NCBI GenBank assembly: GCA_003225075.1
Contig: QIAP01000039.1
Span: forward strand, 1 to 64,000
Direction of reading: 5' to 3'
Length of the DNA stretch: 64,000 nucleotides
DNA from: Acidobacteriota bacterium
Lineage (GTDB): Bacteria; Acidobacteriota; Terriglobia; Terriglobales; Acidobacteriaceae
A program made the position numbers and the translations under genes. The stretch's first letter is position 1, and the number at the start of each line of letters is the position of its first letter. Positions 35,252 to 51,316 of this stretch are shown piece by piece. A model generated the notes under the pieces. The model saw nothing but the letters and a program-made list of their open reading frames with translations. It was not told where the DNA came from and ran no database searches.

Positions 35252-36449
35252 CTAGAATCCCGCGCCAACCGTTCTTCCGATCAGGCGAATCAGGCGCACG
35301 ACACGATACAGGGGAAAAACTGCTGCCGGTAGCCGAACTGTCTCCCATTCTCCCGTGCTGGGGGTAACGGCTAGCCGCAAACCAAAGCGAGTTTTGTCAC
35401 GACGGCGTTCTCGAAGACGCATCATCAAACGAAAATAATCCACTGACTCAGTGTTGTACTCCGAACTCTGAACTAATAAGTGACGAATTTCCCGAGCCAA
35501 AGGCTCCATTTGCGGATCATTGGCAACATCGGCCGGAAGGAGACGCGGTGCCACCCTCCACAAGTTCTGTGTCAGCCAGAAACTAATTGCAAGAATCGGA
35601 CGCCTAATGCCCGAGCCTCATCCCACACCAACTCGTAGTCGATTGCCTGCGTTCGTATGGTTTCAGCGATGTCTCGAAGCCAGGACAGTCGCCCCCAACG
35701 ATGTTTTGCCACATGAACACAAAGCACAAGCAAGAGGTCTTCAGATGAGAGGGAACGAATCTTCTTCCCGCCTAACTCGAGGCTGGAAGCTCGTTCGAAA
35801 AGCTTATCCATTTGAAAATCGATGGCATAAAAACGAGGCAGAATGCGCCATTTTAGTTCGAGCAGGTTCCTACCCGCGGGTCCGTCAAAGGCCAGTTCAT
35901 ATCCCGATCCAAGATAAGTGCCCTCCTGCGCTCTAGTCAGTGCCATGACCGGGGAATAACCCAGCTCGCGAACCGCCGTCCTGGCACGGACCAGATCAGC
36001 TGCATCGATGAGAACATCCAGATCAGAAAATTGCCGGAGTGCGACATCCTGGTACAGGGATTCCGCCAGTACCGGGCCTTTGTATGGGATGGCGGCGATT
36101 CCGTGCGACTCCAGACATTCCAAAACCCTGATCAGGTCGTGTGTAAGGCGCAGGTTTTTCTGCGTATTTCGTCGATAGAACTCGGATAATCGCTCAAGTA
36201 CTCCGCGCGGAACGTTTCCAGGAAAAGGGCACAAGCCGCGATAAAGCGCGGGCATGACATCGTGATGCTCTGCCAGGCGAGTGACTTCGCCCCAGTCCAG
36301 CGACTGCTGTAGCGCAGCGTGGATATGCTCGGAGCGATCAGCGTCTCCAGCACAACAGGCCAGCAGCAAGTAAATTCATCACTGGAGACAATACCCTGAC
36401 TGGAAGGTTTCTCGATTGGACGCACTAGTGCCGACGACAGTTGGGCCAT
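35252..36449 (-). pseudogene. Nucleotidyltransferase (PF14907-like), interrupted by two frameshifts
   Basis: Three reading frames join into one protein of about 400 aa. Segment 1 from ATG 36449 is MAQLSSALVR...IVSSDEF; segment 2 is [20 protein letters not shown] through FLQLVSG; segment 3 is [22 protein letters not shown] onward to 35252. Breaks lie near 36369-36374 and near 35580-35590. Segment 2 carries the nucleotidyltransferase core [28 protein letters not shown] (Lys-Gly-Pro and Asp-Leu-Asp). Family members occur beside lasso-peptide and other RiPP genes. It faces away from the ABC exporter/PqqD/radical SAM genes. Either real decay or sequence errors. Confidence 0.75.
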
Positions 36450-36471
36450 GGCAGTAACATCTTTACTTCTT

Positions 36472-36515
36472 GTGCGCTGTCCCCAAATCTAAGAGGGGAG
36501 ACTCGGGCAGCGCAC
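36472..36515. promoter_or_regulatory. Inverted repeat just upstream of the exporter promoter
   Basis: GTGCGCTG (36472-36479) and CAGCGCAC (36508-36515) are perfect inverted repeats, with an inner CCCC/GGGG pair. The right arm ends two bases before a consensus TATAAT. It could be an operator between the divergent nucleotidyltransferase and exporter genes. Confidence 0.4.
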
Positions 36516-36517
36516 AC

Positions 36518-36523
36518 TATAAT
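36518..36523 (+). promoter_or_regulatory. Predicted -10 element for the ABC/PqqD/radical SAM genes
   Basis: A consensus TATAAT lies 74 bases upstream of the favoured ATPase start. The position overlaps the end of the inverted repeat 36472-36515. No convincing -35 is seen. Confidence 0.4.
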
Positions 36524-36596
36524 AGAGACACTTTCGCAACATCCTGGGATGAATGCATTACTTGGTGCGAGCCAGTCCTCGCGCAGATTCGAAAGC

Positions 36597-37403
36597 ATGC
36601 AAAGCATCGTATTCGATTCCGTGAGCAAGGCATTTCGCCATCGTCCCGCCCTGTTTAATTGGATGGGCAGGGAGCGGAAGGGAGAGACACAGGCGCTAGA
36701 TGATCTGTCGCTCAGCATCCCTCCTCGAAAAATTCTGGTCCTGCTGGGACCGAATGGGAGCGGGAAGACTACTACGCTTAAGCTCATTTCGACCATGCTG
36801 CTGCCCGATTCTGGACGAGTCCTGGTCGAAGGCTCCGACACGCGCCGGGAAGGGGACCGTGTCCGCCGACATGTAGGGTTCGCGGTATCTACCGAGAGAT
36901 CGTTTTTCCCCCGCCTTTCCGCTCGAGAGAACCTCGACTTCTTTGCAACTTTGGATGATGTTCCACGGCGCGAGCGGACGGACAAGATTGACCAGGTAAT
37001 TGGGCTTACTGGGCTGGTCGAATCCGCCGACACCCTGGTCATGAAATTTTCCACCGGGATGTATCAGAGGCTCGGCATGGCGCGCGCCCTGATCAAGAAG
37101 CCCTCTGTGGTTTTGTTGGACGAACCAACTCGCAGTCTCGATCCTGGTTCCGCGGTACATTTCTGGGAAACGGTCCGGGAGTTGCCGGATCTGGGTTCGA
37201 CCGTGATTCTGGCCACCCATAGCTTTTCAGAAGCTGCGGCGGTGGGCGACTTAGTAGCCGTGCTCTATCGAGGAACGTTGGCCGGCTCTCTCCTGCTTTC
37301 AACCAATACCGGCATTGACGATTTGCGGGAGTTCTATTTTCGAACTACTGGTGAGTTGGAGCAAGTCCCGGAAACGGAAACGGCAGTAGGAGGGCGGTGT
37401 TGA
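36597..37403 (+). CDS. ABC-2 type exporter, ATP-binding protein
   Basis: This 268-aa ABC ATPase has Walker A LLGPNGSGKTTT, the Q-loop region, an unusual signature FSTGMYQRLGMARAL (STGMY in place of LSGGQ), Walker B VVLLDEPTRSLDPGS and the His switch LATHSFSEA. It is of the CcmA/drug-exporter type. The favoured start is the ATG at 36597 (MQSIVFDSVSKAF); an upstream ATG at 36549 is possible. Its gene overlaps the permease gene. In context it probably exports the product of the PqqD/radical SAM pathway. Confidence 0.85.
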   Translation: MQSIVFDSVSKAFRHRPALFNWMGRERKGETQALDDLSLSIPPRKILVLLGPNGSGKTTTLKLISTMLLPDSGRVLVEGSDTRREGDRVRRHVGFAVSTERSFFPRLSARENLDFFATLDDVPRRERTDKIDQVIGLTGLVESADTLVMKFSTGMYQRLGMARALIKKPSVVLLDEPTRSLDPGSAVHFWETVRELPDLGSTVILATHSFSEAAAVGDLVAVLYRGTLAGSLLLSTNTGIDDLREFYFRTTGELEQVPETETAVGGRC

Positions 37404-38206
37404 ACTGGGCCTCATTGCTGGACAAGCTGCTTGCCATTGTTCGGCGGGACTTGCTCACCTCAATTCGCTATCGCACCGGTTTTATCCTCACCGCCGCCGG
37501 CGCGCTGGCGGAACTAGCCGCTTTTTACTATTTGTCGCGTGCGATTGGTCCCGGCTTTCGTCCTGAAGGAGTGGACTACTTCCCCTTTCTTCTTGTAGGT
37601 ACAGGTTTCTATACATTCCTGGTGATGGGAGTGCACGCATTTCTCGCTACCGTCCAGGAAGCTCAGCAAAACGGCACCCTGGAAGTCCTGATGACGACCG
37701 CGACTCCTTCTCAAATATTGGTGTTTCTGAGTGCGATTTCAGCTTTTGCGGGCAATACCGTCAGCTTGTTTTTTTATCTGCTCGCCGGATTGCTGCTGTT
37801 TGGAGCACCACTACATCCCAATATCACCGGCTGCGTGGTGATCTTCGTACTTTCCCTGACGATCGCCATCGCCTTGGGTATTTTTGCCGCCGCTTTACAG
37901 TTGGCCATCCAGAAAGGTTCAGCCGTCGTATGGGCGCTGGGCTCAGGAGTGTGGTTTCTGACGGGAACCATGTTTCCGGTCACAACCTTGCCGGCAGGGC
38001 TGCGGTTTATCTCCGGGTTCATTCCGATCACTCACTCTCTCGAAGGCATGCGCTCGGCGTTGCTGCGAGGCGCACCGTTCTCCGTGCTGGCTCACGAAAT
38101 TGTGGTGCTCACATTATTTTCTCTGGTGCTTTTGCCATTGAGTCTCGCAATCTTCTCGTACACGCTGCGTCGTTCCCGCTTGGAGGGAACTCTTTCCTTT
38201 TACTGA
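37397..38206 (+). CDS. ABC-2 type exporter, permease
   Basis: This 269-aa integral membrane protein has six hydrophobic helices in ABC-2 arrangement, with VQEAQQNGTLEVLMTTATPSQIL as the conserved cytoplasmic loop and VWFLTGTMFPVTTLPAGLRF near the C-terminal end. It pairs with the preceding ATPase, with a seven-base overlap. GGAGG sits just upstream; the GTG at 37397 or the TTG at 37400 could initiate. Confidence 0.85.
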   Translation: MLNWASLLDKLLAIVRRDLLTSIRYRTGFILTAAGALAELAAFYYLSRAIGPGFRPEGVDYFPFLLVGTGFYTFLVMGVHAFLATVQEAQQNGTLEVLMTTATPSQILVFLSAISAFAGNTVSLFFYLLAGLLLFGAPLHPNITGCVVIFVLSLTIAIALGIFAAALQLAIQKGSAVVWALGSGVWFLTGTMFPVTTLPAGLRFISGFIPITHSLEGMRSALLRGAPFSVLAHEIVVLTLFSLVLLPLSLAIFSYTLRRSRLEGTLSFY

Positions 38207-38215
38207 TGTCCTGGC

Positions 38216-38374
38216 GTGTTGGTGAGACGCCTGTTGCGCAACATTTTGTCCTTCGCTAATGATTCGGAACTAGTGAAACTGATATTTCGGTCTGCTTTCG
38301 ATTTTGTCACCGACGTCGCGGTGCGCCGGCTGACGTTCTTTCCGGATGAGCGTGTTTGGGATCTGATCGAGTAG
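38216..38374 (+). CDS. 52-aa ORF between exporter and PqqD gene
   Basis: The GTG ORF begins MLVRRLLRNILSFANDSELV and ends FFPDERVWDLIE at TAG 38372-38374. It is in the same frame as the permease but lies after its stop. The peptide is amphipathic (basic N-terminus, acidic C-terminus) and lacks Cys, so it does not look like a classic core peptide. Its place beside a PqqD-like recognition protein makes a precursor or small accessory role worth considering. No Shine-Dalgarno is obvious, so expression is uncertain. Confidence 0.35.
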   Translation: MLVRRLLRNILSFANDSELVKLIFRSAFDFVTDVAVRRLTFFPDERVWDLIE

Positions 38375-38400
38375 AAGAGGGGAATCCCGCGAAAAATTCA

Positions 38401-38718
38401 ATGGCTGACAAGTACATTGCCAGAAGCTCGGAGATCGCGGCCCGCATGATGGGCGGCGAAATGATGATCATGTCAGCGGCGGATTCCACCTTTTTTACCT
38501 TGAATGAAGTCGCCTCCTTAATATGGCAGGCGGCCGATGGCTGTACTTCACTTTTCGAGATCGTCGATGAAAAGATCTGCCCCGAGTTTGACGTGGATCC
38601 CGACTCAGCGCGTCGCGACGCGGAACAATTCGTAGATGAGCTGTCGAAACATGGTATTTTGCTGATCTCGGACAAGCCGATAGCCGTTCCGTCTTTCCCC
38701 ACCTCGGAGGCGCAATGA
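38401..38718 (+). CDS. PqqD-like peptide-recognition (RRE) protein
   Basis: This 105-aa protein has the PqqD fold: N-terminal beta strands with ARMMGGEMMIMSAADSTFFTLNEVASLIW, then a winged-helix part DGCTSLFEIVDEKIC and DAEQFVDELSKHGILLIS. PqqD-type domains bind the leader of a ribosomal precursor peptide and present it to a radical SAM enzyme, which is the next gene (four-base overlap at 38715-38718). The start ATG at 38401 has only a weak upstream SD; the frame is open to 38356. Confidence 0.85.
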   Translation: MADKYIARSSEIAARMMGGEMMIMSAADSTFFTLNEVASLIWQAADGCTSLFEIVDEKICPEFDVDPDSARRDAEQFVDELSKHGILLISDKPIAVPSFPTSEAQ

Positions 38719-39810
38719 GTTTGATGGCGGAGATAGCCACTAAGGCCTTGGATCTAAATATCCCCATCGATGTGCATATTGACGTCACCTACCGCTGTAA
38801 CGAGCGCTGCGTCCACTGCTATCTCGATCACGACGACCATGGCGAATTGAATACTATAGAAATCAAGGACATCCTCGACCAACTCGCCGACGCCGGCGTC
38901 TTCTTTCTGACTTTCAGTGGCGGCGAAGTTTTCATGCGTCGCGATTTTCTCGAACTGGTGGCTTACGCTCGCCAGCTTCAGTTCAATGTCAAGGTGAAGA
39001 CCAACGCGGTTATGATTCGCGAGTATGAAGCTCAATGGTTGAAAGCCCTTGGAGTTGAGCAGATCCAAATCAGCGTGTACTCGCATCGTCCCGAAATCCA
39101 CGACGCTATTACGAAGCTGCCCGGTTCGCTTAAGCGAACCATTAAAGCGATTCGGTTTCTGAAACTTCAAGGACTTAAGGTCACGATGGCGAATGTGTTG
39201 ATGACAGCCAACATGTTTGATCATGCTGGAGTTCAGGCGCTCGCAAAAGAACTGGACGTCATTTTACGCTCTCGACCCGACAATTACCCCGAAGATGGAC
39301 GGGGACATGTCAATTCTGAACCTGCGTATTCCGGGCAGCGAACTTCGCCAGGTTTTCCGCAATGAGTCCTTGATAGGCAATGTGCAGGAATTCTGCGCTC
39401 CGCCCCAACCAGCGAGCGAGGACGAGCTGGAGAGTTTTCCTTGCAGCGTCGGACACACGGCTTGCTATATTTCTCCCTACGGTGATGTCTTTCCGTGCGT
39501 GCAATTTCCTCTGCCCAGCGGCAATGTACGACGGCAGAAATTCCTCGATATCTGGAGATACTCGCCGCAGTTAGCTGATGTGAGCTCGATTCGCGCCAAG
39601 AATCTGCCGGTTTGTTCAACTTGCTCGCACGTAGGCAGTTGTACACGATGCCCGGGGCTGGCTTACATGGAGGGCAACATGCACGGTCCTTCCACTGCTG
39701 ACTGCGAAAAATCGTTTCAGCGCACCGGAATCCCCTCCGCCAACATGCTTCGTAAGAGTAAGCTGGCTTCAACCGCCCAACTTGTGCAGATACAGCCGTT
39801 AATGATGTAG
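38715..39810 (+). pseudogene. Radical SAM/SPASM peptide-modifying enzyme with one frameshift
   Basis: The first frame (38715-39365) holds the radical SAM core: DVTYRCNERCVHCYLDHD (CxxxCxxC), LTFSGGEVFMRRDFLEL, VKTNAVMI and QISVYSHRPEIHDAITKLPG. The second frame, usable from about 39275 to 39810, continues FYALDPTITPKMDGD and then the Cys-rich SPASM region (FPCSVGHTACYISPYGDVFPC, CSTCSHVGSCTRCPG, ADCEKSF). Removing one base from CATTTTACG near 39270-39278 joins them as AKELDVFYALDPTITPK. Enzymes of this type, with PqqD, install C-C or thioether links or splice peptides. Real inactivation and sequencing error are both possible. Confidence 0.82.
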
Positions 39811-40431: not shown

Positions 40432-41247
40432 TTAGCCGCGACCAGCGGCATGCGCGGCAAACTGCGGCACTACGGGTAAGGCGCGAATTAATTCCTGGGT
40501 GTAGCGGTGCTCAGGACTCCGGAAAATGCCTGCTGCGTCGCGGCACTCCACAATCTGACCTTGCTGCATAACTGCGACACGGTTGCTGATGGTGGCCACC
40601 GAAAGCAGATCGTGGGAGATGTAAAGAATACTTATGCCGAGCCGCTGACTGAGGTTTGCGAACAACCTCAGAATTTCCGACTGCGTGATAATGTCTAACG
40701 CGCTGGTTGGTTCATCGGCGATCAACAACGATGGACGATGTAGAACGGCCATCGCGATCAGCACCCGCTGCGCCTGTCCCACGCTGACCTGGGCTGGATA
40801 TCTTTTCAGGAAGTCTTCCTCGACCGGCAAGCTGACAAGGTCTAACGCGTGCAGCAAAGCCTCTCGGCACTCATCTCGACTCCCGCTTTTATGTATTTTC
40901 CAGGCTTCGCGCAGTTGGGTCCCGATCCGAAGCGCCGGATTCAATGCTGACATCGGACTCTGCAATACCAGGCCCATCTCTTTACCCCGTAGCCTACGCA
41001 TCTCGAATTCTGCGAGCGACATAAGATCACGGCCGCCAAAATGTATAAAACCTTCAGCTTTGCCGCGCTTCAAATGGAGCAATCTAAGAATTGCCAGAGC
41101 CAAAGTACTTTTCCCGCAGCCGCTCTCGCCCACTAATCCAAGGATCTCCCCTTGATTGAGCTCCAGCGATAGGTCACGCAGCACGGAGGCTCTGCCCGGG
41201 TAGTCTGCAGAGAGATGGAGCGACAGGACTGGCTGATTCGGTGTCAA
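40432..41247 (-). CDS. Dipeptide/oligopeptide-type ABC importer, ATP-binding protein
   Basis: This 271-aa ATPase has Walker A GLVGESGCGKST, the DppD/OppD-like MGLVLQSPMSALNPALRIG, the signature QVSVGQAQRVLIAMA (VSVGQ instead of LSGGQ), Walker B SLLIADEPTSALD and the His switch ILYISHDL. It is the last gene of a minus-strand operon. Its start overlaps the solute-binding-protein stop by four bases. Only one ATPase gene is present, so it may work as a homodimer. Confidence 0.9.
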   Translation of the reverse strand: MTPNQPVLSLHLSADYPGRASVLRDLSLELNQGEILGLVGESGCGKSTLALAILRLLHLKRGKAEGFIHFGGRDLMSLAEFEMRRLRGKEMGLVLQSPMSALNPALRIGTQLREAWKIHKSGSRDECREALLHALDLVSLPVEEDFLKRYPAQVSVGQAQRVLIAMAVLHRPSLLIADEPTSALDIITQSEILRLFANLSQRLGISILYISHDLLSVATISNRVAVMQQGQIVECRDAAGIFRSPEHRYTQELIRALPVVPQFAAHAAGRG

Positions 41248-42875
41248 TGCTTCCTCGCGACCTCGTTGCCCAACACCAGTTGATCGATGTTCCAGTACAC
41301 CTGGGGTCGCAGGACGACAGGGTGCGCATTGTGCACCGAAGGTGAAACTGCCGACAGCGCATTACGGTTGACGAGATAAATAAACGGTTCCTGTTCCCAG
41401 GCGATTTCCTGCACCTGGTCAAAATAGGTTTTGCGCTTTCGCGAATCAAGCGTGGAGGCTTGTGCGCGCATCAATTTGTCAATTTCCGCTTCCCAATTGG
41501 TTGCGGGACTTTTCTGGTTCGGATTCCACTGGTGATTTTCGGCCGAACTCAGCCATATATTCATTTGCGAATCGGGATCGAGATCGTTATTTACCAGCCC
41601 CAAAAGACAGGCTTCATAGTTAAAGCTGCGGGTAATGCGTTCAATGAGCGAAGGAAAATCAAGCGTGACAATGTTCAATTTGATCCCGATTCCGGCCAGG
41701 TCCTGCTGGATCATGGTGGCCATGCGCTCCCGGTACTTGTTGCCGGAGTTAGTAATTAGTGAAAATTCGACGCCGTGGCCTTGACGATCGCGCAAAACAC
41801 CATCTCTTAGCTGGAAACCATCCTGACTCAATCGCTGGAGCGCAGAGGTGGGATCGAAGGGATGAGGTTGCAGCTTGGAGTTAAACCAGAATTTGTTTGC
41901 GATAGAAACCGGTCCGACGGCTGGCCGCGCGTGTCCATGAAAAACTATGCGAGCGAGGTCGTCACGGTTGATGGCTTCAGAAATCGCACGTCGAAAATTC
42001 GTGGAACGAAACCATTCTTTTTTGTAATCCGGTAAAGGAGAGCTTGCGACCTGATTGAACCACATCTGCTCAGAGTCGAGTGACACGCCTGCATCATGTG
42101 CCATTGAAGAATCCTGGGATAGGATCTTGTCGAAGTATTCGGCATCCAGGGAATTGATGAAATCAAGTTCTCCACGAAGCAGGCGCAGAATCTCGGTGTC
42201 CCGGTTTTGCTGAATATCCAACTTGATCGACTCGATATACGGCAATTGTTTGCCGCTGCCGTCGTGCTTCCAATAATTCGGGTTTCGCTGGAGCAGCACA
42301 TAGGAGCCGGCTTTGTATTCGGCGACGTGATATGGCCCCAATACTGCCATTTCTTTTTGGGGAGACTTGGCCGACATGATTCCGACTTGGTCGAATAGTT
42401 TGTCCAAACCAGCGATGGGCGCGGGAAAGGTGATGGCAACCCGATTGCGCGATAAGACCTGAATCTCAACCGCGCCTTCGCCCGAGCGGAAGGAATCCGC
42501 GGTGGGCGAGTGCAGCGCTGGATCCATGAGCTGCCGAACGGTGTAACCAACATCTTCAGCGGAGAACGGAGTGGTGTCCGAGAAGCGAACGCCGTCGCGT
42601 AATTTGAAAATAATCGTCCTGCCCCCATTGCTGATTTTCCAAGCCGTGGCCAGTTCCGGTATAGCGTTCTGCGTGAGACGGTCCACACGGATGAGCACCC
42701 CGCCAGTGAGATAACGGATGGTCTCGGATGAATCATCTTCCGCCAGCAGCGGATTGAAAGTCTTGGGCTCGGAATGCAGGCAGAAGCGAAGCTCGCTGCC
42801 CGATTGTGCAAATGCAGTTATGGCACCTAGAAGGCTGATGACCACCAGAATGATGCGAAAGCGATGTTGTTTCAT
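41244..42875 (-). CDS. Extracellular solute-binding protein, family 5 (peptide type)
   Basis: This 543-aa protein has a signal peptide (MKQHRFRIILVVISLLGAITAFAQ), then SBP_bac_5 features: SEPKTFNPLLAEDDSSETI, LATAWKISNGGRTIIFKLRDGVRFSD, and FSAEDVGYTVRQLMDPAL. DppA/OppA-like proteins capture peptides or nickel/opine-type ligands in the periplasm. The ATG at 42875 gives the signal peptide and overlaps the upstream permease stop by four bases; the longer open frame does not look like a signal sequence. Confidence 0.9.
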   Translation of the reverse strand: MKQHRFRIILVVISLLGAITAFAQSGSELRFCLHSEPKTFNPLLAEDDSSETIRYLTGGVLIRVDRLTQNAIPELATAWKISNGGRTIIFKLRDGVRFSDTTPFSAEDVGYTVRQLMDPALHSPTADSFRSGEGAVEIQVLSRNRVAITFPAPIAGLDKLFDQVGIMSAKSPQKEMAVLGPYHVAEYKAGSYVLLQRNPNYWKHDGSGKQLPYIESIKLDIQQNRDTEILRLLRGELDFINSLDAEYFDKILSQDSSMAHDAGVSLDSEQMWFNQVASSPLPDYKKEWFRSTNFRRAISEAINRDDLARIVFHGHARPAVGPVSIANKFWFNSKLQPHPFDPTSALQRLSQDGFQLRDGVLRDRQGHGVEFSLITNSGNKYRERMATMIQQDLAGIGIKLNIVTLDFPSLIERITRSFNYEACLLGLVNNDLDPDSQMNIWLSSAENHQWNPNQKSPATNWEAEIDKLMRAQASTLDSRKRKTYFDQVQEIAWEQEPFIYLVNRNALSAVSPSVHNAHPVVLRPQVYWNIDQLVLGNEVARKH

Positions 42876-43678
42876 GCCGGCAACTCCTCTTGAACCATGA
42901 CAAGCTGGAAGCAACTTACGAGCACAATGAACAACAACAACGGAATGAACCGCCAGGGATTGCCCGCTAACGATGGATAACTCTGCATCTCCCGCAGCAG
43001 ACTGCCCCATGAGGGCAGCGGCTCGGCAACTCCGAGACCCAACATGCCAAGATTGGCTTCAGTCAGGATGAAGGCTGGAACCGATATCCAGAACTGTGCA
43101 AGCAGGACTGGAAGAAGGTTTGGGACCATGTGTCGCCATAACAAGCGAAGCCCGGAACTGCCGGACGCACGCGCCAACAATATGAAATCAGAATTGCGCA
43201 AAGAGCGCGCATCGGCGCAGACCACTCGAGCGGCTGCGGCCCATCCCAGGCACCCGAGTAGAAGAAACGTTATGGCGGCTGAAACGATCGGCGACACGTT
43301 CAGCGGCATCAGGGCTCGTACTGTAATCAGCAGGAAGAGCCAGGGTAAGGATAGGAAAAGGTCGGTCCCTGACATGACAATTTTCTCAACCCTGCCTCCC
43401 CTGAAGCCCGCGGTTCCACCAATGAGAGCTGCGAGCAGGCTCGACAGCAGTGCCGCTGCGGGCGCCAATAGCAACGACACCCGCGTGCCATAGAGCAGGC
43501 GCGAGAAGCGGTCGCGCCCCAGGTCGTCTGTCCCCAGAAGATGCTGCCGCGAAGGAGCAGCATCAGGCTCAGCGCGGAATTGGTGGGTATAGGAAGCAGG
43601 AGCGATGACATCTGCAAGCACGCACGCCGCCGCGGTCAGTGCAAGAAGTGACACCGCCAGAGTGGGTGCCCATTTCAT
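42872..43678 (-). CDS. Peptide ABC importer permease, DppC/OppC type
   Basis: This 268-aa protein has about six hydrophobic helices and the DppC hallmark HLLGTDDLGRDRFSRLLYGTRVSLLL near residue 47. The EAA-like loop with ARASGSSGLRLLWRHMVPNLLPVLL follows, then MLGLGVAEPLPSWGSLL. It forms the inner-membrane channel with the preceding DppB-type permease. It has four-base overlaps at both ends. Confidence 0.9.
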   Translation of the reverse strand: MKWAPTLAVSLLALTAAACVLADVIAPASYTHQFRAEPDAAPSRQHLLGTDDLGRDRFSRLLYGTRVSLLLAPAAALLSSLLAALIGGTAGFRGGRVEKIVMSGTDLFLSLPWLFLLITVRALMPLNVSPIVSAAITFLLLGCLGWAAAARVVCADARSLRNSDFILLARASGSSGLRLLWRHMVPNLLPVLLAQFWISVPAFILTEANLGMLGLGVAEPLPSWGSLLREMQSYPSLAGNPWRFIPLLLFIVLVSCFQLVMVQEELPA

Positions 43679-44544
43679 GCCGCACTCGGTCGGAAAGCCT
43701 CACCCAAAAGGTTCGAGGCCGAGTTGGCCAGCAGTGTGATCACTGTGACCACCATGGTTAGGTTCACCAGCAGGTAAAGGTCACGGCCGAGGGCGGCTTT
43801 CCAGGCCAGTTGCCCAATTCCAGGCAAGTCGCAAAGAGCCTCCACCGGGATCGCTGCTGTGAGCGCAAGGCTGACGGAAACTCCACCCAGGGCCAGCAAT
43901 TGCGGAGCTGCCGGCCAGAGGATATGCCAGAGCATAATCCGAAAGTTGCCAAGGCCCTTGGCTTGCGCCATCAGAACGTGGGGCTGGGACGCGCTCCGCA
44001 GCAGCAGGTTGCGCACGTATCGATACACATTTGGAAAAACAATCAGCGCCAGCACAAGTCGCGCGGGAGCGCGGGACATGACAAATAAGACCGACAGCAC
44101 GGCTGCCGGCAGGCACAGTAGGAATCCACTAATGACGCTGCCGAAGAGGTCGACGCTCCAAGATCGTGACATCAAAGCAAGGATGACCAGCGCAAAGCTC
44201 AATGCCCATCCCAGCGCAAGGCTTAAAGTGACAGACTTCGCGGTTTCCGGTAAGCGTTCCCTGAGAAGCTCGGACACAGGCCGGCGTAGGGTCCGGGAGA
44301 TACCCAGGTCACCATGAAGCATCCGGCCCAGGTAACGAAAATAGAAAGTAATGACATTTGTGTCAGTTTGCTGCTCCTGCCGGAGAGCGCGAATGCTTTG
44401 GTCATTCAAGCGGCTGTCTAGTTCCTCTTCGTCTACGCCAAAGCCGGGTGCCACGCGCAGCAGCGTGGCTCCCAGGATACCGCCCAGAAGCACGGTAAGC
44501 AGAATTCTGGCTACGTGTTTTCCCAATCTGAACAAAGTCCGCAA
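43675..44544 (-). CDS. Peptide ABC importer permease, DppB/OppB type
   Basis: This 289-aa protein has about six hydrophobic helices and DppB traits: GDLGISRTLRRPVSELLRERLPETAKS, the EAA-like VLMAQAKGLGNFRIMLWHILWPAAPQLL, and the C-terminal DLPGIGQLAWKAALGRDLYLL. It lies 32 bases downstream of the HD-GYP/GGDEF gene on the same strand and heads the dppBC-SBP-ATPase series, so all five genes are probably co-transcribed. Confidence 0.9.
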   Translation of the reverse strand: MRTLFRLGKHVARILLTVLLGGILGATLLRVAPGFGVDEEELDSRLNDQSIRALRQEQQTDTNVITFYFRYLGRMLHGDLGISRTLRRPVSELLRERLPETAKSVTLSLALGWALSFALVILALMSRSWSVDLFGSVISGFLLCLPAAVLSVLFVMSRAPARLVLALIVFPNVYRYVRNLLLRSASQPHVLMAQAKGLGNFRIMLWHILWPAAPQLLALGGVSVSLALTAAIPVEALCDLPGIGQLAWKAALGRDLYLLVNLTMVVTVITLLANSASNLLGEAFRPSAA

Positions 44545-44576
44545 CTGCTCCTGCGCTAAGTCCGCTAATCAAGGAT

Positions 44577-47336
44577 TTACTGTTTAAGCATTTTCGAAAG
44601 GTAATAGTTGTCGTAAACCTTCGTGGTGCGGTCGACGAACTCCAGGATCTGTTGCAAGTTTGCGCGATCATCGCGGCTGCCCTCGGGGAATTTCATCGCA
44701 ATTCCGCAGCCCGGATCGGTGCGCAGCACTCTGGCTTCGGCCTGCATTTTGCCATCGTCCATGGAGAAGATCAGTTTGAGCTTTGAATCTGGTGGCAGGA
44801 GAGCGCTGGTTTCAACATAGCAGCCTCCCAGACTGATATTGGTCAGATTGCCGAGAATGGGAACCTTCTCGTTTTCGGGATGCAGTTCAATCGTGAGACG
44901 CCCCTTCAACCGCGGATAGAGTCTGCGGTTCTTCCGGCTTGGCTGGTTCTGCTTCTCGACGTACATTCGGCGATCCGCCTCAGCCAGGAGCTCCTCCGCA
45001 TCAAGACCATCGTCCGGATACACGGAGCGGCCTACGCTTAGAGACAAAATATCTTCATTGCAAACTTCTTTCCCGACCTGCTTCACCAATTCACGAAGGC
45101 TCTCGGCCTTCTTCAGGGCTGCGTCCGGAGTAAGTCCCGGCGCAATGACCACGAATTCATCGCCGCCCATTCGCGCCACGTAGTCGTATTCGCGGCAGGT
45201 TTCCTTAAGAGCATGAGAAAACAATCGCAGAACACGGTTTCCTTCGAGGTGTCCAAAGCGATCATTGATCTGCTTGAATCCGTCCATGTCCGAAACCATT
45301 ACCGTGAGGGACGAATTATCACGCTTACAGCGTGCCAACTCGCGATCCAGTTGCAGGAACAAGGAGCGCGCATTTGGCAGACCTGTGAGGTAGTCGGTGG
45401 TGGCAGAACTTTCGGCTTGCTGGTATTTGAGGGCATTCTCAATCGCCAATGCCATTTTGGAACTAATGGCTAACAACATGCGGAGATGGTCGGAGGTGAA
45501 CGCATCCTTCTCCCCGTGATACAGGGTTAGTACTGCTACTACCCCATCCACTCCTTCGAGTGGAATAGCCATCGCCGAACGCAAAGTGCTGAACTTTGTA
45601 GGATCGTTCAAATAACCGGGTTCAACCGAAGGATTGCCGTTGATGATAGGTTTCTTGTTTTGCGCGACCCACCCGGAAAGTCCTTGTCCCAGGGGTATGC
45701 GCAGTGAGGCAAACAGGCGGAAGTTATCGCCGCTGACGTGTTCTGGCAGAAGCTCGTTGTTGCGCCGCACGTAGATGGCAATGGCGTCGTAGGGGACCAA
45801 CCGTTTTAATTTGACGGAAAATACCGAGAGAGTTTCCCCCAAACTGAGTGATGCGCCCAGATCCTGGCTAAGTTCAAATAACGTCTGAGCCTCCTGCCGT
45901 GCTGCGGCAATGGAGGAGAGGAAGTTTGTCTCGTGCGGCTCCTTTGCGCCGATCTCTTCAAATCCTGCGGCGGGCGCAACATCACGGTCCACCTTTACCT
46001 CGGTAGTCAACTTCGACCAGGCAATCTGACCGGAGCTCTTCTCCACCAACTTCTCAAGATCCAGATAACTCCTCTTGAGCACAGTGACCACTTTGGGGTC
46101 AAACGACTTGCCGGATTCCTCTTCCAGGCGTTTCATCACCTCCTGCAATGGCAAAGCCCGCCGGTATTGACGGTCTGAAGCCATTGCATCCAGGAAATCA
46201 ACTGCTGAAAGAATGCGAGCCCCCATTGGGATTTCTTCATACTTGAGACCAAGAGGATATCCGCTGCCGTTCCACTTTTCGTGGTGGGCGCGGACGATTG
46301 GCACAACTGGATAGGGGAAACGAACGCGCTCGAGAATCTCCGCTCCTACCAGCGGGTGAATCTTCATCTTCTCGAATTCTTCCGGGGTAAGCCGTCCGGG
46401 CTTGGAGATTATGTGTTCGGGAACAGCCAGCTTGCCGATATCGTGCAGTAACGCTGCTGCATTCAACGCTTCCATCTCTTCGTGACTGACTTTCAGTGCT
46501 TTAGCCACTTCAATCGCGTACACCCGCACCCGTTGCAAATGATCGTGGGTAGTATGGTCTTTGGCTTCGATGGCCAGCGCCAGCGCTTCGATCGTGCGCA
46601 GGTGCAGGTTCGCCATGTCTTCAACGTGCCGCTTCTCATCCTCCAGTTTGCCAAGATAAAGCCGATAAGAGCGGTAAATCAGAAATACGACAGGGAGCAC
46701 TAGCAGCGAAGTCTGCCAATCGATGATGCTGTTTAGCCAGCTCATCAGGCCGGCAATTCCAGCACCCACAAGGTAATAGGGGAAAGACCAGAAGTAGCAT
46801 TCTGACCATATCTTGTTCAGTGACTTGTGCTCAGTGAGGGCGATGACAGTCGCCACCGGCACTGTGTTCGAAACAAAATACATCGAGGCGGTGAGCACCA
46901 GGAGGAACGATGGATTACTGACCTGACCGTGGAAAATGGCCAGGTGATAGACCGAGTACGCACAGGCAATCGCGAAAGCGGTCGCGCAAATATTGAAGAT
47001 GACTTGTACAGGCCGCGGTCGGTCGCGGTACAAACACTGCACCAGAATGGCTGCGCATCCCAGGGCCAAAGTCTCTCTGAAACTGAGTTGCAATACGCCG
47101 AGAAGAATGAAGAGAAAGTTGACTGACATCGTGCCCGTTATTCCGGGCAGGTTTACCTTGAGTCGTGACGCAACCACTGCCACCAGCGTGTAACAGATGA
47201 ACTTCAGAGGATCGCCGCTGGAATGATCTAGTGCGATCGCGTAAGCGAGAACACAAGAACCTGTAAGCACGATAGCGCCGATGAAAAGGTGCGCTGCCAG
47301 CGTCATCTGTTTCCAGGATTGTGACTGACCGGCCAT
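44577..47336 (-). CDS. Membrane HD-GYP / GAF / GGDEF / PilZ cyclic-di-GMP protein
   Basis: This 919-aa protein has six to seven N-terminal membrane helices (residues about 12-220). The HD-GYP domain at about 240-410 has HDIGKLAVPEHI and HHEKWNGSGYP, both metal/GYP motifs intact. A GAF domain lies at about 470-625. The GGDEF domain at about 640-795 has DYLTGLPN and ARMGGDEFVVI with GGDEF intact. A C-terminal PilZ domain has RRLYPRL and NISLGGCYVET. It therefore looks able to make, degrade and sense c-di-GMP. ATG at 47336 is chosen; in-frame TTG codons extend to 47372. Confidence 0.9.
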   Translation of the reverse strand: MAGQSQSWKQMTLAAHLFIGAIVLTGSCVLAYAIALDHSSGDPLKFICYTLVAVVASRLKVNLPGITGTMSVNFLFILLGVLQLSFRETLALGCAAILVQCLYRDRPRPVQVIFNICATAFAIACAYSVYHLAIFHGQVSNPSFLLVLTASMYFVSNTVPVATVIALTEHKSLNKIWSECYFWSFPYYLVGAGIAGLMSWLNSIIDWQTSLLVLPVVFLIYRSYRLYLGKLEDEKRHVEDMANLHLRTIEALALAIEAKDHTTHDHLQRVRVYAIEVAKALKVSHEEMEALNAAALLHDIGKLAVPEHIISKPGRLTPEEFEKMKIHPLVGAEILERVRFPYPVVPIVRAHHEKWNGSGYPLGLKYEEIPMGARILSAVDFLDAMASDRQYRRALPLQEVMKRLEEESGKSFDPKVVTVLKRSYLDLEKLVEKSSGQIAWSKLTTEVKVDRDVAPAAGFEEIGAKEPHETNFLSSIAAARQEAQTLFELSQDLGASLSLGETLSVFSVKLKRLVPYDAIAIYVRRNNELLPEHVSGDNFRLFASLRIPLGQGLSGWVAQNKKPIINGNPSVEPGYLNDPTKFSTLRSAMAIPLEGVDGVVAVLTLYHGEKDAFTSDHLRMLLAISSKMALAIENALKYQQAESSATTDYLTGLPNARSLFLQLDRELARCKRDNSSLTVMVSDMDGFKQINDRFGHLEGNRVLRLFSHALKETCREYDYVARMGGDEFVVIAPGLTPDAALKKAESLRELVKQVGKEVCNEDILSLSVGRSVYPDDGLDAEELLAEADRRMYVEKQNQPSRKNRRLYPRLKGRLTIELHPENEKVPILGNLTNISLGGCYVETSALLPPDSKLKLIFSMDDGKMQAEARVLRTDPGCGIAMKFPEGSRDDRANLQQILEFVDRTTKVYDNYYLSKMLKQ

Positions 47337-47746
47337 CCTCGCCAGCAACTCCTTTCCCGTCCGTCGACACAACGGCGGACTCCTAGCTCTAATAATTGAT
47401 ACCAGCTAAGTGACACATAGCAAAGGATTACCTCTTGGAACCCGAAACTTTCGTAACTTACAATTGGAGCCCTTCGGAAGATCAACCGCGGACAGCGGCG
47501 GACATAGTGTCCGCGGCTTCGACTGGGTCGTCCATCCTCTTGAAATCGAGCCATTTATACGCGGATCGGGGCAAGGATGAGCGCGATGGGGATACGGCTC
47601 ACTTGGCCACATTGTCCGTCGTCAACGAGTACCACATTGTTTTCAAAGCTATGATAATAAATGGTTTATTTATTTGTCCAACTTAGGCGAGCCGAATGCA
47701 CTGCTACTAGTGGAGCAACGGAGCCGAATTGCTTCGGAGAAGTGGA
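47337..47746. other. Divergent intergenic region with palindromes
   Basis: These 410 bases separate the HD-GYP operon from the subtilase gene. They hold CCGCGGACA/TGTCCGCGG (47486-47516, with a tighter GCGGACA-tag-TGTCCGC stem inside) and an AT-rich palindrome AATAAA-tgg-TTTATT at 47656-47670. Either could be an operator or a promoter element for the divergent units. No ORF is supported here. Confidence 0.4.
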
Positions 47747-49570
47747 ATGGGCCTGAAACCAAAACCCGAGAAAAGTGCTTTGAGTGCTCAGGTATCCACG
47801 GCCAAGTGGCACGTCACCCTGAAACTGATAGTCCTGGTCCTCGCCATTACGGTCTGGCATCCGCCAATGGGGGCGCAAAGCCATTGCAGGGCGAGGACCG
47901 CAACTCTCGTGGTACAGCCAAACTCTCTCCTGAACTTACGACATTGATATTAAAAGCGCAGCGTACCGGTTCCTCGAACGCACGGGTCCAGGTAATCGTT
48001 CAATTCCGTAAGAGCCCCACAATTGCTCACATTAAGAAAGCCACACGGTTAGGAGGAGTTCATGCCCAAACTCTGCGGCTGGTTCGCGCTGGAGTATTCA
48101 ATCTCTCGCTGAGCGCAATTCAGGCATTGGCAAAGGATCCTGAAGTCACTTACATCTCGCCCAACCGTACAGTTGGGGTTTCAAACGATTATTACGAACA
48201 AACGGTGGGCGGTGATATCGCCCACTCTTACGGCTGGGATGGCACTGGTATCGGCGTGGCGGTCATCGATAGCGGCGTCAGTGATCATCCCGATCTGTAC
48301 GACACCCGGCAGGTAAATTCACGCGTTGTTTACAGCCAAAGTTTTGTTCCCGGTAGTAGTGTTAGCGATGGCTACGGCCACGGTACGCACGTTGCGGGAA
48401 TCATCTCCGGTAACGGTTGGAGTTCTTACGGCACCATCTTCGGCGTCGCCCCCCAATGTCAACATCATCAACCTGAAGGTTTTGGACGGGAATGGAGCAG
48501 GTTCTGATTCGGGCGTGATCGCTGCCATCCAGCGCGCTATTGCTCTCAAAAGTACTTACAATATTCGCGTAATCAATCTTTCCCTGGGACGTCGCGTTTA
48601 TGAGAGTTATACGCAAGACCCGCTTTGCCAGGCGGTAGAGGTCGCATGGAAGTCGGGTTTAGTTGTAGTGGTCGCCGCCGGTAATTTTGGACGCGACAAC
48701 AGCACACATACCAATGGCTACGGAACTATCGCCGCCCCGGGCAATGATCCATACGTAATAACCGTTGGCGCAATGCGCACGATGAACACACCTCAGGAGT
48801 CCGATGACAGGATCGCGACTTACAGCTCCAAAGGGCCGAGCCTGGTTGACCACATTGCGAAGCCGGATCTGGTAGCACCCGGGAACAAAATTGCCTCACT
48901 CCTTTCCCAGGGCAGTACTTTAGAGCAAAAGTACCCTGGGGATGTACTCAATCCGATCACATACGGCGACTATAGCGGACAAGACAGCTACATCAAGTTG
49001 AGCGGCACAAGCATGGCTACTCCCGTCGTGAGTGGCGCTGCGGTGCTGATGCTGCAAAAAAGTTCCGGTCTCAATCCAGACGCGGTCAAGGCGCGACTGA
49101 TGAAGACCGCAGACAAGATGTTTCCGACACAATCCTCGACCTATGACCAATTCAGTGGCGTCACATATAGCGCACAATACGACATCTTTACCGTGGGTGC
49201 AGGCTACTTAAACATCCCTGCGGCGCTTTCGAACAATGACACCGTATCGGGCACAGCGATGTCGCCCGTCGCTGTGCGGAATCTCACGGGAACGGTTTCT
49301 CTGCAAGCCGACTCCTCATCGGTCTGGAGCAACTCGGTGGTGTGGGGCAACTCGCTGATCTGGGGCACTTCAGTCGTTTGGGGGAACAGCGTATTGCTCA
49401 ACGGCACTTCAGTGATCTGGGGCAGCTCCGTCGTGTGGGGCAACAGCGCGTTGGACGGGTGTAGCGTGATTTGGGGAAGTTCGGTGGTGTGGGGTGCCAC
49501 CCTGGGTGCAACCGATGCCGGCAGTGCGGCGGAGTCGATTGATGGAAGTGGTGACGACGACGGAGAGTAA
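47747..49570 (+). pseudogene. Secreted S8 (subtilisin-like) peptidase with WG-repeat tail; two apparent frameshifts
   Basis: The N-terminus from ATG 47747 (GGAGA six bases upstream) is a signal peptide (LKLIVLVLAITVWHPPMGAQ). The frame shifts near 47870-47885 (ATGGGGGCG) to the inhibitor-I9-like and catalytic frame: VQVIVQFRKSP, GIGVAVIDSGVSDHPD (Asp) and GHGTHVAGIISG (His). It shifts back near 48450 in a run of six C to PNVNIINLKVLDGNGAG through GTSMATPVVSGAAVL (Ser). About ten six-residue units of the type S-V-V-W-G-N follow, then an acidic end DGSGDDDGE. All catalytic residues are present once the frames are joined, so sequence error is a serious alternative to decay. Confidence 0.8.
49322..49497 (+). 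repeat. WG hexapeptide repeat array in the subtilase C-terminus
   Basis: About ten consecutive six-residue units follow the pattern Ser-hydrophobic-hydrophobic-Trp-Gly-(Asn/Thr/Ser), such as SVVWGN, SLIWGT and SVIWGS. Two units lack Trp (SVLLNG, SALDGC). At DNA level GTGTGGGGCAAC-type 18-mers recur with variation. The regular period suggests a beta-solenoid or surface-attachment tail. Confidence 0.75.
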
Positions 49571-49690
49571 GTCCGGAGAATCTGTGTAGTTCCGGCGTAT
49601 CGAATCGCCGCAACAGTACAGACATCGTGCCGTAATTAGGGTGATTTGAATACAACGAATACAACTTTAGAGAAAAGTGAGAGGGCAGAT

Positions 49691-49792
49691 ATGAAATCGA
49701 CAAAGAAAGCTGCGATAGTTGCATTCCTGATCACCGCCGCGGTGGTCGCGTTCAGCATCTTGTCAGCCGCTTCAGCCGTATGGGGCAGCTAG
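49691..49792 (+). CDS. 33-aa signal-peptide-like protein ending in VWGS
   Basis: The ORF has GAGAGGG eight bases before the ATG. It encodes a basic n-region (MKSTKK), a 20-residue hydrophobic core (AIVAFLITAAVVAFSILSA) and an AxA-type cleavage site (ASA). The last four residues are VWGS, followed by TAG. VWGS is the same motif that is repeated at the C-terminus of the subtilase encoded 120 bases upstream. Signal peptidase cleavage after ASA would free the tetrapeptide. Whether this is a peptide signal, a small membrane protein or a relic of a duplicated repeat is open. Confidence 0.55.
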   Translation: MKSTKKAAIVAFLITAAVVAFSILSAASAVWGS

Positions 49793-49982: not shown

Positions 49983-51002
49983 TTGCCCGGGGACTTCCGC
50001 GTCCACTCAATTGAAACCTTCGCGGATAGTCGCCCACTGATCTTTCTTTGCATGAAGCCAGCTACCCAAATGCAATTGGCCGACGGGACCATAGCCGTAG
50101 TTCGCAGCGAAATCATGCGCAAGCTCATGGCTATGGTGGAAAGAGTAGCCCGAGAGGAGGCTGCGGTTCTCATCATTGGTGAAACCGGCAGCGGCAAGGA
50201 ATTAGTTGCGCAAGCTATTCATCAGCATTCACTACGCTGTGGCAAGCCATTTGTTGACGTTAATTGCGCTGCCCTGCCGGAACACCTCGTCGAAAGCGAA
50301 CTCTTTGGCTATGAAAAGGGCGCATTCAGCGGCGCCGAAGCGACCAAGCCTGGTCTTTTTGAACTCGCGGACCATGGCACCCTGTTTCTCGACGAAATTG
50401 GCGAACTGGACGCGAAAGTACAGGCTAAGCTGCTGCGTGTGCTGGATGGAGTCGCTTATTATCGTCTTGGTGGCAGCCGAAAAGTAGCCGTGAATGTGCG
50501 GGTCCTTGCGGCAACGAATCGCGACTTGGAAACAGAGGTCCAGGCCGGAAAGTTCCGTCGAGACCTTTACCATCGACTCAGCCAATTCCAGTTACAGGTC
50601 CCGGCTTTGCGGGAACGTCCGGATGATATCGTGGCCATTGCTGAATACTTCCTCGTCCAGCAACTGCCTGAAGGCAAGTTTACAGTGGAAGCTTTGGAAG
50701 TGCTGCAACGCTATTCGTGGCCGGGCAACGTACGCGAGTTGAAGAATGTAATTTTTCACGCCGCGATGCACGTCAAGACCGGGATTAAGGAGATTCGTGC
50801 TTCCGACCTTCCGCCGGTGATATGCGGTTTTTCCGAACCTGGTACACCCGCGACACCTAGCGGAAACCTGGAAGAAGTGGAAAAACAAATGATTCTCCAG
50901 GCTCTCGCCCAGAGCGGTGGCAACCAACTGAAAGCCGCGCAGCAACTGGGGCAGACGTACTCAGTACCCTGCGGACCGAACAGCAGCGTTATTTCCGGGT
51001 GA
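49983..51002 (+). CDS. Sigma-54 enhancer-binding-protein-like AAA+ regulator
   Basis: The protein has 339 aa (316 if starting at ATG 50052). The AAA+ domain has Walker A GETGSGKE, the L1 loop [17 protein letters not shown] (GAFSGA in place of GAFTGA), Walker [12 protein letters not shown], the sensor region [12 protein letters not shown] and the [14 protein letters not shown] segment. No receiver domain precedes it. The Fis-type helix-turn-helix starts ([12 protein letters not shown]) but is then lost in [11 protein letters not shown] before TGA. The frame that continues into the next gene reads [11 protein letters not shown], so a one-base loss near 50948-50951 may have split an AAA+/HTH/PilZ fusion. 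Confidence 0.8.
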
Positions 51003-51316
51003 CGACCGAATTGCCCGTGATTATTAATCTAGACGGCGAACATATTGAGGCGAATACCGTAAACATCAGCTCTGGAGGGCTCGCCATACGTTGTCCAGTC
51101 ACTCTCACTCACGGCGCAACTATGGAAGTCTCATTCAAGCTGCCGGGAAGCGACTCTAACATCGAAGCCAACGCCAAACTGGCCTGGACCAGCCCCGGCG
51201 GATTTGCCGGACTAAGCTTTGACCAACTGCACCCCTCGTCGCAGCGCCACCTGCAACAATGGCTGTTTGCCGCAGCTCAGACCGACGGCCACACCGAAGC
51301 CGAACCCGTGCGCTGA
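50999..51316 (+). CDS. PilZ-domain protein or C-terminal part of the AAA+ regulator
   Basis: This is a 105-aa PilZ-like beta barrel with NISSGGLAIRC (the D/N-x-S-x-x-G motif) and a C-terminal helix. Its GTG overlaps the preceding stop by four bases. Reading the same frame upstream gives QQRYFRV, the usual PilZ entry (R-x-x-x-R with the first Arg replaced by Gln). The true domain therefore seems to begin inside the previous gene. Either translational coupling or a frameshifted fusion explains the layout. Confidence 0.65.
   Translation: MTTELPVIINLDGEHIEANTVNISSGGLAIRCPVTLTHGATMEVSFKLPGSDSNIEANAKLAWTSPGGFAGLSFDQLHPSSQRHLQQWLFAAAQTDGHTEAEPVR

What the first reader, a model, noticed from the sequence alone, without database searches (positions are those of the whole stretch)
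49691..49792. Signal-peptide-only ORF that would release a VWGS tetrapeptide matching the neighbouring protease's repeats
The 33-aa ORF has a good SD, a basic start, a hydrophobic core and an ASA cleavage site followed only by VWGS and stop. VWGS is the repeat unit of the subtilase C-terminus encoded 120 bases upstream. Signal-peptide-derived peptides are known signals in other bacteria (enterococcal pheromones). A secreted tetrapeptide, or a membrane mini-protein that binds or is bound by the WG array, would be new. The coincidence of motif, position and SD is seen in the sequence; function is inference.
Basis: partly seen in the sequence, partly recalled or inferred. Interest (0 to 1): 0.75.

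Follow-up and report, generated by a model that had tools for sequence, protein, structure and literature searches.

The report
Microprotein paired with WG-repeat subtilases
A 33-residue membrane mini-protein that ends in a single copy of a neighbouring protease's repeat motif is a real, conserved gene found only beside such proteases in one family of acidobacteria, and it most likely works with that protease rather than releasing a four-residue signal.

Summary
The ORF is real: 49691-49792 (+), MKSTKKAAIVAFLITAAVVAFSILSAASAVWGS*, 120 bases after the WG-repeat subtilase. It is a conserved gene. I found 23 homologues in 19 genomes of 7 genera of the same bacterial family, all ending ASAVWG[S/N/G/A] and all beside a WG-repeat subtilase, downstream or upstream. 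Where testable, dN/dS is low. None was found outside the family, and no Pfam or NCBIfam model matches.

Two classes exist: 33-36 aa, with ASA just after the hydrophobic core, and 41-45 aa, with ASA 13-15 residues after it. Three class I members have a lipobox. The invariant unit is therefore a membrane-tethered ASAVWG tail, not just a signal-peptidase site, which weakens the free-VWGS pheromone idea.

WG-subtilases without the mini-gene often carry S-A-x-W-G inside their own signal peptide (19/39); those with it never do (0/20). The two states alternate on the subtilase tree.

Best explanation (inferred): a membrane-anchored one-repeat partner of the subtilase's WG array. How it acts is unproven, and the topology of the cis motif does not fit simply. 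The neighbouring oligopeptide ABC transporter belongs to the subtilase locus, not specifically to the mini-gene.

The parts
49691..49792 (+). 33-aa WG-tail microprotein (class I): basic start, hydrophobic core, C-terminal ASAVWGS
   Evidence: 64/59/59/55/42% identical homologues, all 33 aa, ending ASAVWG[SNG]; dN/dS
49679..49685 (+). Shine-Dalgarno-like sequence (GAGAGGG) before the ATG
   Evidence: GAGG with 6-nt spacing; stronger AAGGAGG in g49 and G014 homologues
47747..49570 (+). S8 subtilase with C-terminal hexad (S-x-[VI]-W-G-x) array; reading frame changes between the signal peptide and the propeptide and at about 48455 (C6 run)
   Evidence: PF00082 in two frames; comparison with the intact relative L009
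49314..49505 (+). WG array of the subtilase (VWSN, VWGN, IWGT, VWGN, IWGS, VWGN, IWGS, VWGA)
   Evidence: alignment A3
50052..51316 (+). sigma-54 activator (AAA+ and HTH_8) plus PilZ; one 432-aa protein in relatives, frame-broken here
   Evidence: PF00158, PF02954, PF07238; synteny
44577..47372 (-). MASE9 / HD-GYP / GGDEF / PilZ c-di-GMP protein, divergent neighbour conserved in the locus
   Evidence: 71-78% identical at sORF+ loci of g49, g68 and g59
43675..44568 (-). DppB/OppB-type permease
   Evidence: PF00528; conserved at g49, g68, g59 and g50 loci
42872..43699 (-). DppC/OppC-type permease
   Evidence: PF00528
41244..43058 (-). family-5 (oligopeptide/nickel-type) solute-binding protein
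   Evidence: PF00496, E 5.6e-70
40432..41361 (-). Opp/Nik-type ABC ATPase
   Evidence: PF00005, best NCBIfam NikD-like below cut-off

Best explanation
The ORF is a real gene for a membrane-tethered microprotein dedicated to WG-repeat subtilases. Its N-terminal helix (or a lipid, in members with a lipobox) holds one copy of the repeat unit, (A)S-A-V-W-G-S, at the outer face of the inner membrane. There it most likely engages the subtilase's own WG array in trans (docking, capping or anchoring) and so controls folding, retention or activity of the exported protease. Shown: gene, conservation, purifying selection, exclusive association with WG-subtilases, fixed tail in two length classes, and mutual exclusion with an S-A-x-W-G motif in the subtilase's signal peptide. 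Inferred: membrane tethering, contact with the array, and the regulatory outcome.
For: 23 homologues in 19 genomes and 7 genera all end ASAVWG[SNGA] (one with an extra C) and all lie beside a WG-subtilase, downstream in g1, g49, g68 and g59 and upstream in g23, g50 and g54. Within-genus dN/dS is 0.06/1.07, 0.11/0.73, 0.05/0.34 and 0.04/0.35. The conserved serine is coded by both TCN and AGC, so protein, not DNA, is conserved. The tail equals one array hexad; the second subtilase of L121 has ...SAVWGNSAVWGN.... Lipobox in g68b and g59, and the longer class II, keep the tail attached to the membrane part. Subtilases with the sORF never carry the cis S-A-x-W-G motif (0/20) while 19/39 without it do; on the tree the two states need at least 4 changes.
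Against: No direct evidence of binding or even of translation. The cis motif lies in the n-region of the subtilase signal peptide, expected to face the cytoplasm, whereas the microprotein tail is expected outside, so the two are not simply interchangeable. Many WG-subtilases have neither motif. AlphaFold models of the subtilase and of its array were uninformative (pLDDT 40 and 37). The exclusivity statistic is not corrected for phylogeny.
Confidence: 0.45

Rival explanations
1. Signal-peptide-only precursor: Sec export and signal peptidase I cleavage after ASA release VWGS (or a lipopeptide fragment), which the adjacent Opp-type importer takes up as a pheromone, as with enterococcal iCF10/cCF10.
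For: Class I fits a Sec signal peptide with an AxA site 1-5 residues after the core. An oligopeptide-type ABC importer (SBP, two permeases, ATPase) and c-di-GMP proteins sit in the same locus in the window and in the g49, g68, g59 and g50 loci.
Against: Class II tail is 13-15 residues past the core; lipobox members would stay on the membrane; residues beyond the AxA rule are equally fixed. The same SBP and ATPase flank WG-subtilases that lack the sORF (L144, L152, L155, L158, L175, L180, L181), so the importer tracks the subtilase. No cognate receptor was identified.
Confidence: 0.15
2. S-A-x-W-G next to a hydrophobic segment is an address or processing tag read by a dedicated membrane factor (for example the MASE9-type membrane protein beside the subtilase). 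The microprotein is a free-standing tag or decoy that competes with, or supplies, the tag of the protease.
For: The motif occurs next to a hydrophobic segment in both settings and is exclusive between them. Among 27 sampled S/T-A-A-W-G DNA matches in eight genomes, apart from one transporter-like chance match, only subtilases have it just before a signal-peptide core. MASE9-like proteins are frequent neighbours.
Against: The motif is on opposite sides of the hydrophobic segment in the two settings; no reader protein was identified; the C-terminal arrays are not explained.
Confidence: 0.18
3. Leader peptide or translational-coupling ORF that sets expression of the neighbouring gene, with the peptide itself irrelevant.
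For: Short ORF with SD; in g23, g50 and g54 it directly precedes the subtilase.
Against: In four genera it follows the subtilase; amino acids, not codons, are conserved (serine TCN/AGC); the tail is invariant while nucleotides drift.
Confidence: 0.05
4. Chance ORF or fragment of a decayed subtilase.
For: The window's subtilase and sigma-54 regulator both contain frame breaks, so the locus may be decaying or badly assembled.
Against: 23 homologues, fixed position and tail, purifying selection.
Confidence: 0.02

Closest known systems
Enterococcal pheromone/inhibitor precursors (cCF10, iCF10/PrgQ)
   Same: Very short secreted or membrane ORF, or signal peptide; active part at its C-terminal end; Opp-type importer relevant (PMC7117660)
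   Different: Here the tail is a copy of a neighbouring protease's repeat, stays tethered in class II and lipobox members, lies in a Gram-negative acidobacterium, and no receptor or plasmid system is present
Small bacterial membrane microproteins that bind larger membrane or exported partners (general knowledge, e.g. AcrZ, MgtS)
   Same: Single hydrophobic segment, under 50 aa, encoded near or acting on a larger partner
   Different: No sequence relation; partner here would be an exported subtilase, and the tail copies the partner's repeat unit
S8 subtilases (Pfam PF00082) with C-terminal repeats
   Same: The neighbour is a typical secreted subtilase; nearest solved relative by sequence 3afg
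   Different: The S-x-[VI]-W-G-x array matches no Pfam or NCBIfam model and no solved structure convincingly (best E 0.065)
Extended signal-peptide motifs (YSIRK, ESPR; general knowledge)
   Same: The cis S-A-x-W-G motif lies in the signal peptide n-region just before the hydrophobic core
   Different: Different sequence, found only in WG-subtilases here, and exchangeable in distribution with a separate gene

Membership tests
Signal-peptide-derived peptide pheromone (cCF10/iCF10 type) | Short precursor or signal peptide whose C-terminal few residues are cleaved off and released | tested here: inconclusive
   AxA site plausible in class I; not in class II (13-15 aa from core) nor in lipobox members; no peptidomics
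Signal-peptide-derived peptide pheromone (cCF10/iCF10 type) | Dedicated importer linked to the precursor gene | tested here: not met
   Opp-type ABC genes present but equally beside subtilases lacking the sORF, and absent near the g54 sORFs
Signal-peptide-derived peptide pheromone (cCF10/iCF10 type) | Cognate intracellular receptor/regulator | tested here: inconclusive
   No RNPP-like gene seen among the large ORFs of window 40-53 kb; sensing elsewhere in the genome not excluded
Sec signal peptidase I substrate | Basic n-region, hydrophobic core, small residues at -3/-1 within about 7 residues of the core | tested here: met
   Class I, including the window ORF; class II does not meet the spacing
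Bacterial lipoprotein | Lipobox with conserved Cys | tested here: not met
   Window ORF has none; only the g68b and g59 members do
Leader/attenuator peptide | Lies upstream of the regulated gene; peptide sequence dispensable | tested here: not met
   Downstream of the subtilase in g1, g49, g68 and g59; purifying selection on protein
S8 subtilase (neighbour) | PF00082 with D/H/S motifs | tested here: met
   in two frames in the window; single frame in L015

The most novel reading that the evidence does not exclude
A one-repeat WG tag that evolution moves between the protease's own signal peptide and a separate membrane- or lipid-anchored microprotein. The tethered unit nucleates or caps the protease's WG array by like-with-like pairing, deciding whether the protease is retained at the membrane or released, in a locus wired to c-di-GMP.
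Probability: 0.2. Interest if true: 0.8.

Novelty: new variant of a known kind. Interest (0 to 1): 0.6.

Why it matters
It adds an unannotated microprotein family whose only conserved sequence is a copy of its neighbour's repeat unit, which makes a testable case of a protease controlled by a tethered single repeat. It also shows that a short ORF first read as 'signal peptide only' can be tested by comparison across genomes, and gives a compact module (sORF, WG-subtilase, peptide importer, c-di-GMP proteins) for work on acidobacterial protease control.

Tried and rejected
HMM search of 396 phylum-wide genomes gave only signal-peptide look-alikes outside the family; a pattern search of 389 class-wide genomes gave two outside hits that are random ORFs. 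The idea that the Opp importer is specific to the sORF was tested and rejected. No sigma-54 promoter was found before the subtilase/sORF pair (the first scan had an index error and is void). No sigma-70-like promoter or forward terminator near the sORF. AlphaFold models of the whole subtilase and of the WG array were too poor to use, so no fold search was run. Literature searches found nothing on these arrays or on such an ORF. Search for a diverged short ORF beside sORF-lacking subtilases found none with a WG tail.

Full report
OBSERVATION. The ORF at 49691-49792 (+) reads MKSTKKAAIVAFLITAAVVAFSILSAASAVWGS* and starts 120 nt after the stop of the WG-repeat subtilase at 49570. A GAGG lies 6 nt before the ATG. 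The array of this subtilase has units VWSN, VWGN, IWGT, VWGN, IWGS, VWGN, IWGS, VWGA, so the match is to the hexad S-x-[VI]-W-G-x rather than to the exact string VWGS. The subtilase is in two frames compared with an intact relative (47908-48462 and 48452-49558), and the downstream sigma-54/PilZ regulator, one 432-aa protein in relatives, is also broken. These may be assembly indels or decay. The small ORF itself is intact.

CONSERVATION. A protein search of 200 same-family genomes found six homologues at once; aligned with tandem copies they share L13 and A-S-A-V-W-G as invariant columns. A DNA pattern for AxAVWGx-stop in 398 same-family genomes gave 31 hits: 22 are short ORFs with a hydrophobic N-terminus and every one is next to a WG-subtilase on the same strand; 9 are random ORFs. 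One more member (G152) ends ASAVWGSC. In total there are 23 ORFs in 19 genomes and 7 genera. They lie downstream of the subtilase in g1, g49, g68 (two in tandem) and g59 (between two subtilases), and upstream in g23, g50 and g54. None was convincing outside the family. About 70 WG-subtilases were examined and most lack the small gene, so it is an accessory, not an obligate part.

CODING SELECTION. Within-genus pairs give dN/dS of 0.057/1.069 (g49), 0.112/0.728 and 0.048/0.336 (g68), 0.044/0.346 (g50), with differences concentrated at third codon positions; more distant g54 and g50 pairs give higher ratios (for example 0.27/0.85 and 0.18/0.37). The invariant serine is coded TCN in most members and AGC in g23, so selection acts on protein sequence.

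ANATOMY. Class I (33-36 aa): ASA follows the hydrophobic core by 1-5 residues and fits a signal peptidase I site. Three of them (both g68b copies and g59) have LAIAC or LALAC lipoboxes and would mature to lipid-C-[NS]-ASAVWGS. Class II (41-45 aa; g50, g54): ASAVWGS lies 13-15 residues after the core, so ordinary signal-peptidase cleavage there is not expected (established -3/-1 and spacing rules; not tested). What is conserved across all is the tail, including positions -2 and +1 that the signal peptidase does not need. This argues that the tail is recognised as a unit and is usually membrane-tethered.

CIS AND TRANS MOTIF. Many WG-subtilases without the small gene carry S-A-[A/V/M/T]-W-G in their own signal peptide just before the hydrophobic core, e.g. 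ERHSAAWGKRLSVLLLVL (L155), LWSAAWGRVLGLLTL (L138), RSAMWGRKTLVV (L019), and two paralogues in the window's own genome (L131, L135). Of 59 subtilases in the tree, 20 with the small gene have none of these and 19 of 39 without it do (Fisher p 8e-5, not corrected for descent; some of the 39 have truncated N-termini, and a further clade lacking both states, would weaken it). The labels need at least four changes on the tree. In G014 the subtilase's nearest kin have WSAAWG, while G014 has the small gene and reads RSAISDM at that place, in a frame that breaks just after it. Caution: the cis motif should face the cytoplasm and the microprotein tail the periplasm, so the exchange cannot be a simple swap of one binding site.

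LOCUS. In the window and in g49, g68, g59 and g50 the surroundings include a MASE9/HD-GYP/GGDEF protein, two Opp-type permeases, a family-5 binding protein and an ABC ATPase; the sigma-54/PilZ regulator is also present in most. The same transporter genes flank sORF-less WG-subtilases and are missing near g54 sORFs, so they mark the subtilase locus. A protease-plus-peptide-uptake function is the plain reading of the locus.

MECHANISM. I favour a membrane-tethered single WG unit acting on the subtilase's array (0.45). The pheromone reading is possible for class I only (0.15). A tag read by a third factor is a serious rival (0.18). The structure models were too poor to help. The sORF matches no Pfam or NCBIfam model, and the array matches no model or convincing solved structure. 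No paper in the searched library describes it. The nearest precedent for a very short secreted precursor with an active C-terminal end is the enterococcal pheromone system (PMC7117660).

Noticed in passing
window 47747-49570 and 50052-51316: The subtilase and the sigma-54/HTH/PilZ regulator both contain frame breaks compared with intact relatives; MAG indels or real decay.
   Followed up: partly
window 35252-39365: Cassette with a nucleotidyltransferase-like ORF, ABC ATPase and permease, PqqD (38350-38718) and radical SAM (38640-39365), resembling a RiPP-type cluster.
   Followed up: no
L131, L135, L138, L140, L152, L155, L168, L019: A previously unnamed S-A-x-W-G motif in the n-region of WG-subtilase signal peptides, just before the hydrophobic core.
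   Followed up: yes
L121 (G059:C229) about 5.9-9.8 kb: The microprotein sits between two different WG-subtilases; the second has the array ...SAVWGNSAVWGN..., matching the microprotein tail most closely.
   Followed up: partly
L111-L114, L116, L118-L120: A roughly 250-aa MASE9-like membrane protein without a catalytic domain follows most class II-linked subtilases (and appears near many others); the match to Pfam MASE9 is weak.
   Followed up: partly
L190/L146 (G152): Microprotein ends ASAVWGSC with an extra C-terminal cysteine.
   Followed up: no
L150, L172, L174, L178: A separate set of subtilases with NALWGSS-type arrays has neither the microprotein nor the signal-peptide motif.
   Followed up: no
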